A stretch of 64,000 nucleotides of DNA, taken from positions 1,044,658 through 1,108,657 of the forward strand of contig LODT01000035.1 of assembly GCA_001606155.1 (NCBI GenBank). The letters run 5' to 3'. Source of the stretch: Tieghemostelium lacteum (taxonomy: Eukaryota > Evosea > Eumycetozoa > Dictyosteliales > Raperosteliaceae). Every line of letters begins with the position of its first letter. The stretch's first letter is position 1. A program made the position numbers and the translations under genes. Under the pieces are notes generated by a model. That model did not search any database. It was not told the DNA's origin and saw nothing but the letters and a program-made list of their open reading frames with translations. Of the stretch, positions 31,261 to 34,283 are shown in pieces.

Positions 31261-33120
31261 ATGCTTGAAAAATTTATTTCATTTTTGAAGAATAAAGAAG
31301 AAATACAACCAGCTTATATACTACCAGCTTATATCCAACCTGAATTACCATGTTTTCCAAATGGTTGTATTTTTCCTCACCGAGTCATTAGGGATATACT
31401 CAATTGCCTAATTGACAAGGGAGAATATAGAGATGATCACGAATATCTATTTGGATGTATGAACACATTCTCATTAGTTTCAAAAGTGTGGAATGAACAT
31501 ATTATAGTTTCATTGAATTTACCACAAATTCTGATCAACAGTAACAAATTGTTTTATTATAGTACACTGTGGATAAAAAGAGGTATTAAATACAAATGTG
31601 CAGTATTTGATTTCAAGCATTGGAACTCAAGAATGGAAAATTTTACATCACACAATATTAAAATATCACCAAAGATTTTAGAATATCACGAAAAGAATCC
31701 ACAAAAGAATGTGTTGGCTGTGATGTTGCTTGCTCCTACATTCCATATTGACTACATGGACCAAAAAAAGAACCAAACTTTACTAGAGTTTCCTAAATTT
31801 CACGCTAAAGTAAATGTTGCCTATTTGGATTTAGTTAGAAACTTCACATATATCAAGTCATTGAAATTGGATAACTCACTAATACCTCCAGAATATAATA
31901 TCGAACAAATAGTAACATGTTTGTTGGATCTTAATCAATTGGAAGAATTTGATGCTAGGAATATAAAAAAACCATTCCAAGATCAAAGCGAATGTAGTCA
32001 CCTTACTTTGATTGATAATCTCATTAATAGACATATTACGTTAAAGACTCTGATAGTTATGGTAAATAATGTAAAGATTGACTTTATTCTGGATATTGAG
32101 AAAAAGATATTCGATTCCCTAATAGGAAGTAAGAAATTGACTAAATTCGTTTCCAATTTGATTTATACTGCTTCTGGTCTAAATAGACTTTTGAATCAAA
32201 ACCAAACTCTAACCTATCTCGATCTTTTTGATGGCTTTGTGATAGAAGATACTTCAGACCAAATTCAATTTGTTGCCAGCTCACGATTAGACTATTTCTC
32301 AATTTCCGTTCCAAACCACACACAGATATGGGAATCTGAAAACTATGATTTGAGATATCTAGATATTTTAGTGGACCCTGGAAATGATATGACTCACTTC
32401 CTATTTAAATTCTATAATTTGGTAGAATTGGAAATTGATACCTATTTTGACAGTGAAGTTGTAAAGAACTATGTTATTCCATTCTTGAAACTAAAAACTA
32501 ATTCATTTAGATTCCTAAAATTAATTAGACCATCTAATGTTCTTAAAGTTACTATACCTTACAAAGATCTTACTCAAGCTATAATTGAGCATCCAACTAT
32601 TGAAGGAATCCATATGCATTGCTATTCACTACCAGAGGCCAATCTAGTTCAACTACTCCAATCTCGTCACCCTACATTAGAAACAATAGAAATCACTAGA
32701 AATTTAAATTATTTCACTCCAAATACCATTAAAAGGGCTCTAAAGAACAATCAAACTATTAAGAGTCTGAATCTATCATACTCTCTATCAATTACAGGTT
32801 TATTTGATTTAGTATTGACTATACTAGAAGCCAATGTAGTAGAAAATCTTCAATTTGTTGATATGAATAAGATGAATACACCAAGTGATGATACCTCCCT
32901 CAGAAATGCCATCCACGATAATTATTCATTAAAATCATTCCACATTCCAAGATTTACCTTTAAAAAACCTGTAAAGGATATAATTAAAGAGAAAAATATT
33001 CATTCTCAATATTCATCAAATCACAGTTATACAGTCAACCAAAGATCATATGAAAAGAGTATTGAAAGAATTCATCAAATATTTATGCACAGAGATGAAA
33101 TAAATTCACCTTCAATTTAA
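31261..33120 (+). CDS. F-box-like / LRR dictyostelid protein
   Basis: Intronless, 619 residues. The first 100 residues carry an F-box-like helical segment (PHRVIRDILNCLIDKGEY... TFSLVSKVWNEHII). The remainder shows irregular leucine-rich units (YIKSLKLDNSLIPPEYN, HPTLETIEITRNLNYF, NQTIKSLNLSYSLSITG). It resembles the gene at 28,428 in plan but is not a recent copy of it. Probably an adaptor of an SCF-type ligase or another interaction protein (inference). No signal peptide or membrane segment. Confidence 0.7.
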   Translation: MLEKFISFLKNKEEIQPAYILPAYIQPELPCFPNGCIFPHRVIRDILNCLIDKGEYRDDHEYLFGCMNTFSLVSKVWNEHIIVSLNLPQILINSNKLFYYSTLWIKRGIKYKCAVFDFKHWNSRMENFTSHNIKISPKILEYHEKNPQKNVLAVMLLAPTFHIDYMDQKKNQTLLEFPKFHAKVNVAYLDLVRNFTYIKSLKLDNSLIPPEYNIEQIVTCLLDLNQLEEFDARNIKKPFQDQSECSHLTLIDNLINRHITLKTLIVMVNNVKIDFILDIEKKIFDSLIGSKKLTKFVSNLIYTASGLNRLLNQNQTLTYLDLFDGFVIEDTSDQIQFVASSRLDYFSISVPNHTQIWESENYDLRYLDILVDPGNDMTHFLFKFYNLVELEIDTYFDSEVVKNYVIPFLKLKTNSFRFLKLIRPSNVLKVTIPYKDLTQAIIEHPTIEGIHMHCYSLPEANLVQLLQSRHPTLETIEITRNLNYFTPNTIKRALKNNQTIKSLNLSYSLSITGLFDLVLTILEANVVENLQFVDMNKMNTPSDDTSLRNAIHDNYSLKSFHIPRFTFKKPVKDIIKEKNIHSQYSSNHSYTVNQRSYEKSIERIHQIFMHRDEINSPSI

Positions 33121-33293: not shown

Positions 33294-34283
33294 TTACTCT
33301 TGGTAGAAGTTCAATTTGTCGTTACCGCTGATAATGTAACCGAAATTGAAGGTGGCACCTGGAGCAATGCTTGGGTTCCAAGCTAAAGCCCATTGGTCAT
33401 CAACAGAGGTTCTTGAGAGACCCCAGATGGATTGTGGAGCTACACCAGATGGTAAGGAGAGGAAGTTAGGGAAGGTAACAGTGGTAGTACCAATGTTAGT
33501 GATGACACCACTCCATTGAGAGTATTGGGTGTTACCACCATCGATCCAAGATGAAGTACGGGTTTGGTTGACAGAGAGGGTTTGGGTCTTGTTGACATTG
33601 ACACAGTTACATTTTGGAGCAATGTAGAAGATGTTAGTTGGTCTGTCACAATAGGTACCGAACCAGGCATCAGATTCTTGTTGTAAGACACCACCAATAA
33701 CTCTGATTTTGTTAATTTTGACAGTTTCATAGGTATCAAAGAGAGCAGTGGATTCGAATGGAATGTTAGACATACAGATCTTGCAGACGAGATCGTGGTT
33801 GTAGGTACCCCAGACAACAGTTCTAAAGTGAGACCACATGATGGCACCAGCACACATGGCACATGGTTCACCAGTAGTGTAGAGATCGTAACCATCATAG
33901 GCAGCTAAACCATATAAGTTGGTACAGTTGGTAATGGCCATAATTTCACCGTGAGAAATTAAATTTGGTTTACCCAAATCATTGAAACCAATACACATGA
34001 GGGTACCATTGGAGTGATAGATGGAGGAGACGAATTTTCTGTTTTTGCTACGGGCAATGTCCAAGATGTATCTCATACGTTCTTCATGGACGGCTAATTC
34101 AGCAGCTGGGATATCATTTGGAGTCAAAGCAGTGCTTCTTGATCCTGGAGCTGGGAAAGTGGAGTGATGTTGAGCAGTACATTTAGTGCCAAAAGCAGTG
34201 TTAACTGGGTCATAATCGGAATCGCATGCAAAGACTGCACCGAGAACGAATAAAATTACAAAAATTGAAGTGAATTTATTCAT
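33294..34283 (-). CDS. Secreted zinc-dependent deaminase fused to CBM49
   Basis: Intronless, 329 residues. A clear signal peptide (MNKFTSIFVILFVLGAVFA) is followed by a CMP/dCMP-guanine deaminase fold at about 60-215. Its zinc-binding and catalytic residues are HGE (in SHGEIMAI) and PCAMC (in GEPCAMCAGAIMWS), as in cytidine, guanine and tRNA-adenosine deaminases. Residues 230-329 match carbohydrate-binding module 49: a WIDGGNTQYSQWSGVITN core and the hallmark FNFGYI near the end. CBM49 binds crystalline cellulose in dictyostelid extracellular proteins (family knowledge). The gene is GC-richer and more codon-biased than its neighbours, which suggests high expression. Predicted product: an exported deaminase tethered to the cellulose matrix; substrate unknown. 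Confidence 0.88.
   Translation of the reverse strand: MNKFTSIFVILFVLGAVFACDSDYDPVNTAFGTKCTAQHHSTFPAPGSRSTALTPNDIPAAELAVHEERMRYILDIARSKNRKFVSSIYHSNGTLMCIGFNDLGKPNLISHGEIMAITNCTNLYGLAAYDGYDLYTTGEPCAMCAGAIMWSHFRTVVWGTYNHDLVCKICMSNIPFESTALFDTYETVKINKIRVIGGVLQQESDAWFGTYCDRPTNIFYIAPKCNCVNVNKTQTLSVNQTRTSSWIDGGNTQYSQWSGVITNIGTTTVTFPNFLSLPSGVAPQSIWGLSRTSVDDQWALAWNPSIAPGATFNFGYIISGNDKLNFYQE

What the first reader, a model, noticed from the sequence alone, without database searches (positions are those of the whole stretch)
33294..34283. Exported deaminase tethered to a cellulose-binding CBM49 module
One intronless gene joins a signal peptide, a zinc-dependent deaminase domain with intact HGE and PCAMC motifs, and a C-terminal CBM49 with its FGYI hallmark. 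Such deaminases normally work inside cells on nucleobases, nucleosides or tRNA. An exported form fixed to cellulose would act in the slug/stalk/spore matrix, for instance clearing nucleobases or nucleosides there, or acting on food bacteria. Codon bias and G-rich promoter boxes suggest strong, possibly developmental, expression. The architecture is seen directly; the role is inference.
Basis: partly seen in the sequence, partly recalled or inferred. Interest (0 to 1): 0.72.

Follow-up and report, generated by a model that had tools for sequence, protein, structure and literature searches.

The report
Exported amoeba deaminase with cellulose-binding tail
A social amoeba gene makes an exported base-removing enzyme with a cellulose-binding tail; it is one of ten such exported enzymes in the genome and a good candidate for the enzyme, known for decades but reported as never cloned, that destroys the folate and pterin signals these amoebae follow.

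Summary
Window 33294-34283 (-) is one open 329-aa frame with a hydrophobic export-type N-terminus, a zinc deaminase domain with intact HGE and PCAMC, and a C-terminal CBM49 (Pfam E 4.9e-16). It is neither alone nor new as an architecture: the same genome (very probably Tieghemostelium lacteum) holds ten intact exported-type deaminase genes. Two end in CBM49, one in a GPI-like tail, and seven in short, serine-rich or basic tails. A 2016 proteomics paper reports the same architecture in D. discoideum (DDB_G0292096), a major protein of multilamellar bodies made by bacteria-fed cells, function unknown. That weakens the slug/stalk/spore-matrix role. The ten form one clade, next to bacterial deaminases with Tat-like export signals and apart from a B. 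subtilis guanine deaminase clade. The other three PF00383 genes are housekeeping (ADAT2, ADAT3, cytidine deaminase); the only other exported deaminase found is ADGF. My leading reading is that this family supplies the secreted and cell-surface folate/pterin deaminase, described in 2021 as identified biochemically but yet to be cloned. Substrate is inferred, not shown. Digestive nucleobase deamination is the main rival.

The parts
33294..34283 (-). whole gene, one exon, 329 aa, exported-type deaminase + CBM49
34224..34283 (-). predicted signal peptide (residues 1-20; cleavage near 19/20 inferred)
   Evidence: hydrophobic core; inference, no SignalP
33648..34106 (-). CDA-fold deaminase domain (residues 60-212)
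   Evidence: PF00383; model confidence 81-98 per ten-residue block over residues 51-210; fold matches
33945..33953 (-). HGE: zinc ligand His111 and catalytic Glu113 (roles from knowledge of the family)
   Evidence: invariant in 10 of 10 paralogs
33852..33866 (-). PCAMC: zinc ligands Cys141 and Cys144
   Evidence: both Cys invariant in 10 of 10 paralogs (PCAMC in 2, SCPMC in 8)
33834..33836 (-). Trp150, also present in the guanine and cytosine deaminase rows printed, Leu or His in the four TadA rows printed
33330..33575 (-). CBM49 (residues 237-318)
   Evidence: PF09478; aligned with CBM49 of 10 other places of the genome (11 rows, two of them the same place)

Best explanation
The gene encodes an extracellular free-base deaminase of the guanine-deaminase/TadA branch of the cytidine-deaminase fold. 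It enters the secretory pathway, uses a His/Cys/Cys-bound zinc and a catalytic Glu to swap an exocyclic amino group for a carbonyl, releasing ammonia, and its CBM49 holds one isoform on cellulose-like or glycan-rich material. With its nine paralogs (soluble, GPI-like and CBM49 forms) it most likely makes up the long-known but reportedly uncloned secreted and cell-surface folate/pterin deaminase of dictyostelids, which turns the 2-amino-4-oxo-pyrimidine ring of folate and pterins into an inactive product and so shapes or erases gradients of food and aggregation attractants. Shown: export-type N-termini, intact active site, family, tails, phylogeny. Inferred: activity, substrate, surface anchoring, biological role.
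For: Domains and active site intact. Ten exported-type paralogs with different tails: C13 has a TP-rich linker and a hydrophobic GPI-like C-terminus, two have CBM49, seven have neither; this fits an activity described as both secreted and cell-surface (PMC4794234). Model of the deaminase domain: best Foldseek hit is the guanine deaminase NE0047 bound to 8-azaguanine (E 2.0e-9). Trp150 is shared with the guanine and cytosine deaminase rows, not with the four TadA rows printed. Elimination in the genome: the other three PF00383 genes are ADAT2, ADAT3 and cytidine deaminase; of 6 amidohydrolase hits none showed a clear signal peptide where its N-terminus could be read (4 of 6: L032, L033, L034, L036); the only other exported deaminase found is an ADGF-like gene. 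The D. discoideum protein of the same architecture is 35 kDa by sequence and was found in a 46-kDa band, from bacteria-fed cells, function unknown; folate deaminase is quoted at about 40,000.
Against: No tool here tests substrate. By sequence the best PDB matches are tRNA adenosine deaminases (7cph), and the top rows of the structural re-ranking are TadA, with NE0047 and guanosine deaminase within about 1 Z unit; guanosine deaminase stands lower in Foldseek (E 1.5e-7). Elimination covers only three Pfam families, counts are lower bounds, and the N-termini of L035, L037 and L041 were not seen, their cytosolic nature being assumed from family. The D. discoideum protein sits on bodies of lysosomal origin, which suits digestion as well. 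Copy number in other dictyostelids is unknown, so the tie to a pterin acrasin is suggestive only. CBM49 on an attractant-degrading enzyme has no obvious purpose. A hydrophobic N-terminus alone is not proof of export: one cytosolic control (2.39) also scored high. That 8-azaguanine inhibits Dictyostelium folate deaminase is recalled, and a search for it found nothing.
Confidence: 0.42

Rival explanations
1. Digestive enzyme: a lysosomal and excreted deaminase of nucleobases or nucleosides released from eaten bacteria, with CBM49 or glycans keeping it with undigested residue (multilamellar bodies).
For: The D. discoideum protein of this architecture is a major protein of multilamellar bodies, of lysosomal origin, from bacteria-fed cells, and was pulled down by an antibody to a GlcNAc-1-P-type modification (PMC4920372, passages). 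The fold fits guanine/guanosine/cytosine deaminases.
Against: A GPI-like form and Tat-like export signals in bacterial relatives point to work outside cells. The genome also holds an amidohydrolase that looks like an intracellular guanine deaminase.
Confidence: 0.3
2. Matrix-bound enzyme of slug, stalk or spore coat that clears nucleobases or nucleosides or releases ammonia as a developmental signal.
For: CBM49 is confirmed, and CBM49 proteins are numerous among exported proteins of two clusters of the D. discoideum life-cycle proteome, some of them known matrix proteins (PMC12821622, passages). Extracellular ADGF is a precedent for ammonia from extracellular deamination in D. discoideum (PMC12711200, start of abstract and passages).
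Against: The D. discoideum counterpart was found in feeding cells; 8 of 10 paralogs lack a CBM49 match. No expression data here.
Confidence: 0.15
3. Secreted effector that deaminates nucleic acid of food bacteria or microbes, comparable to bacterial toxin deaminases or animal secreted AID/APOBEC-like enzymes.
For: Above-cut-off match to PF14437 MafB19-like deaminase; the fold and sequence also match TadA.
Against: PF14437 also rings in 12 of 14 ordinary control genomes, so the match says little. Trp150 is of the free-base type. No AID/APOBEC or SNAD model is among the window protein's matches at E <= 1.
Confidence: 0.07

Closest known systems
D. discoideum CDD protein DDB_G0292096 (Q54DP5)
   Same: As described in PMC4920372 (passages): predicted signal peptide, cytidine/deoxycytidylate deaminase zinc-binding region, carbohydrate-binding domain, 35 kDa by sequence (window protein 36.4 kDa). 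Likely ortholog.
Folate deaminase of D. discoideum (Bernstein et al. 1981; seen only as cited in PMC8616412 and PMC4794234)
   Same: Secreted and cell-surface deaminase, about 40,000 Da, used by growing cells on folate.
   Different: No sequence is known to me or found in the searches, so identity is a hypothesis.
Guanine deaminase NE0047 of Nitrosomonas europaea (PDB 2g84, 7c3s)
   Same: Best Foldseek match; shared EPC.MC.GA..WS stretch.
   Different: 22-27% identity in the fold alignments; a single-domain chain of up to 197 residues without CBM49; whether it is exported was not checked.
Bacterial deaminases with Tat-like signals (Labrenzia/Roseibium L043, L047, L051; Roseovarius L053; L068)
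   Same: Sister clade of the amoeba family (support 100/95); share HGE, NC[TSG], TTGEPCPMC and the C-terminal segment.
   Different: Tat-type signal; L043, the one of the five scanned, has no CBM49 match and no NCBIfam model over its cut-off.
ADGF (extracellular adenosine deaminase) of Dictyostelium
   Same: Extracellular deaminase acting in development.
   Different: A different Pfam family (PF00962); separate gene in this genome.

Membership tests
Cytidine/deoxycytidylate deaminase superfamily (PF00383) | Profile match above curated cut-off | tested here: met
   49.0 bits, cut-off 25; match at E <= 0.001 in 10 of 10 paralogs, three of them as spliced models
Cytidine/deoxycytidylate deaminase superfamily (PF00383) | H[AG]E and PCxxC zinc/catalytic residues | tested here: met
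   H111, E113, C141, C144 invariant in 10 of 10
CBM49 (PF09478) | Profile match above curated cut-off | tested here: met
   59.3 bits, cut-off 23.4; 25 CBM49 matches in the genome
CBM49 (PF09478) | Binding to crystalline cellulose | not testable with these tools
   Stated for the domain in PMC12821622 (passages); needs a binding assay
TadA tRNA adenosine(34) deaminase (NF008113) | Curated equivalog cut-off (150 bits) | tested here: not met
   35.3 bits
Guanine deaminase, CDA-fold (GuaD/NE0047) | Fold match to solved guanine deaminases | tested here: met
Guanine deaminase, CDA-fold (GuaD/NE0047) | Groups with B. subtilis GuaD in the tree | tested here: not met
   AU test rejects amoeba family + GuaD clade, p 0.0035; the group was named after a first tree, and GuaD is an 81-residue stretch. 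NE0047 itself was not in the tree
Dictyostelid folate/pterin deaminase | Deaminates folate/pterin at the 2-amino group | not testable with these tools
   Enzyme assay needed
Dictyostelid folate/pterin deaminase | Secreted and cell-surface forms | tested here: inconclusive
   Export-type N-termini in 10 of 10, one GPI-like tail, by hydropathy and eye only
Dictyostelid folate/pterin deaminase | About 40 kDa, made by growing cells | tested here: inconclusive
   Paralogs 24.7-41.7 kDa calculated, window protein 36.4; D. discoideum counterpart in a 46-kDa band from bacteria-fed cells

The most novel reading that the evidence does not exclude
This exported deaminase family is the molecular identity of the dictyostelid folate/pterin deaminase. 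It is most closely related, among the bacterial sequences compared, to deaminases with Tat-like export signals, and in T. lacteum it provides soluble, surface and cellulose-bound forms that break down the pterin acrasin as well as food-derived folate.
Probability: 0.35. Interest if true: 0.82.

Novelty: new member of a known kind. Interest (0 to 1): 0.6.

Why it matters
Self-generated folate gradients in Dictyostelium are a leading model of chemotaxis, yet the enzyme that makes them was described in 2021 as identified biochemically but yet to be cloned (PMC8616412). A small set of genes, shared in architecture with a D. discoideum locus that can be knocked out, makes that question directly testable. 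If the substrate is something else, the family still shows that exported base deaminases form a group spanning bacteria and social amoebae.

Tried and rejected
TadA membership: below its curated cut-off, although TadA entries are the best PDB matches by sequence. Grouping with B. subtilis-type guanine deaminase or with the cyanobacterial non-exported clade: rejected by AU tests, p 0.0035 and 0.020, with groups named after a first tree. A viral source: 51 pattern matches in viral contigs, none a relative by tblastn. Plasmids: 7 of 72,556 records matched, none covering 80% of the query. Neighbourhood of bacterial relatives: 10 of 80 loci looked at by eye (first 110 residues of each ORF), no shared neighbour and no pterin or folate gene recognised. 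Pseudogene reading of the C13 copy (split match with one stop): rejected, a GT-AG intron of 82 bases restores one frame. Literature: 10 of 10 searches used. 'folate deaminase' + Dictyostelium gave 5 papers, 'pterin deaminase' + Dictyostelium 0, 'folic acid deaminase' 2, azaguanine + folate + Dictyostelium 0, DDB_G0292096/Q54DP5 1. That no paper clones the enzyme rests on these searches of an open-access subset and on the 2021 review. All papers were seen as listings, starts of abstracts or passages, none whole; PMC9117722 and PMC2786962 were looked into and gave nothing on this family. The CBM49 part of the model has low confidence and was not used.

Full report
What is there. The window is C30:1044658-1108657 of a 23,333,832-base genome in 43 contigs. 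The gene at 33294-34283 (-) is a single open frame of 329 residues. Pfam places a cytidine/deoxycytidylate deaminase domain at 67-159 (E 6e-13) and CBM49 at 237-318 (E 4.9e-16), both above their curated cut-offs. HGE, PCAMC and FGYI are present and intact. The N-terminus has a strong hydrophobic core; export is inferred from this, without a dedicated predictor.

Species. Size fits the published D. (Tieghemostelium) lacteum assembly, 23.4 Mb in 54 contigs and about 30% smaller than the four other dictyostelid genomes named there (PMC4931340, passages). This is a strong inference, not a proof. D. lacteum is reported to aggregate to a pterin, given as neopterin in one of the two papers (PMC3341216 and PMC3712420, passages).

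A family of ten. A protein search of the genome and gene models give ten intact genes with export-type N-termini: the window gene; C13; C42; C4:753k; four in tandem on C31; C35; C4:641k. Three of them (C13, C42, C4:753k) have one predicted intron each. Forty-five residues, including H111, E113, C141, C144, W150 and six further cysteines (C97, C120, C167, C170, C212, C225), are invariant in all ten. The tails differ: CBM49 in two, a TP-rich linker with a hydrophobic GPI-like end in C13, a serine-rich tail in C31a, a basic tail in C42 and short acidic tails in five. Six intronless copies are 74-93% identical in DNA. The window gene and five of the six intronless paralogs have a C-ending codon share of 0.49-0.56, against 0.19-0.38 for the 16 other window ORFs measured; C31a has 0.25, and the three intron-bearing genes were not measured.

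Other deaminases of the genome. PF00383 gives 13 matches: these ten genes plus three that by sequence are ADAT2, ADAT3 and cytidine deaminase. Six amidohydrolase hits look, by my reading of their sequences, like guanine deaminase, a cog0402 enzyme, dihydropyrimidinase, allantoinase, imidazolonepropionase and CAD. N-termini could be read for four and show no clear signal peptide; the cog0402 one is hydrophobic (2.39) but runs straight into its domain. For allantoinase and CAD the N-terminus was not seen. Among four PF00962 matches (three genes by my count) one has a signal-like N-terminus and reads as an ADGF. So within the three families searched, the ten-gene family and ADGF are the only exported deaminases found; search counts are lower bounds.

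Already known. PMC4920372 (passages) reports DDB_G0292096 of D. discoideum: signal peptide, deaminase region, carbohydrate-binding domain, 35 kDa by sequence, found in a 46-kDa band, one of four major proteins of multilamellar bodies made by bacteria-fed cells, function unknown. The architecture is therefore already reported, and it belongs at least partly to feeding cells. My search for its identifiers found only that paper.

Most likely function. A 2021 review says D. discoideum folate deaminase is identified biochemically but yet to be cloned (PMC8616412, passages). It is secreted and at the cell surface, about 40,000 Da (PMC4794234, passages), and at high cell density removes more than 20 nM folate per second, given there as data in preparation (PMC5476428, passages). 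The family here matches in location, size range, chemistry of fold (guanine carries the same 2-amino-4-oxo-pyrimidine ring as pterins; established chemistry), mixed anchoring and elimination. I give this 0.42. It remains inference: no substrate is shown, lysosomal digestion (0.30) explains the multilamellar-body finding at least as well, and the matrix role (0.15) is not excluded. CBM49 may retain one isoform on the sheath or on excreted bodies; this is a guess.

Verdict. What this work adds is the ten-gene exported-type family, its varied anchoring, its link to bacterial deaminases with Tat-like signals, and a testable proposal for an enzyme reported as uncloned.

Noticed in passing
L043, L047, L051, L053, L066, L089, L095, L062, L088, L096, L057, L098, L103: Bacterial deaminases with twin-arginine-like signal peptides in Pseudomonadota, Actinomycetota and Obscuribacterales; for the three of these scanned (L043, L066, L098) no NCBIfam model reached its cut-off.
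   Followed up: partly
L026 (G000:C31:312-318k), L015, L028: Four exported-type deaminase genes in tandem plus two dispersed copies, five of the six 84-93% identical in DNA: recent amplification or gene conversion.
   Followed up: partly
L027 (G000:C13:21.9-22.8k, -): Closest paralog (61% identity in the domain) with TP-rich linker and GPI-like C-terminus; its intron interrupts the Ala codon of PCAMC.
   Followed up: yes
L038/L040 (G000:C29:42231-44354, -): One 737-aa frame holds two adenosine-deaminase domains, the second with an altered first metal motif by eye.
   Followed up: no
window 31261-33120 and flanks of L028, L018, L019: Long leucine-rich, FNIP/F-box-like ORFs (named by eye) lie beside several of these deaminase genes; the window holds others too, so probably chance.
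   Followed up: no
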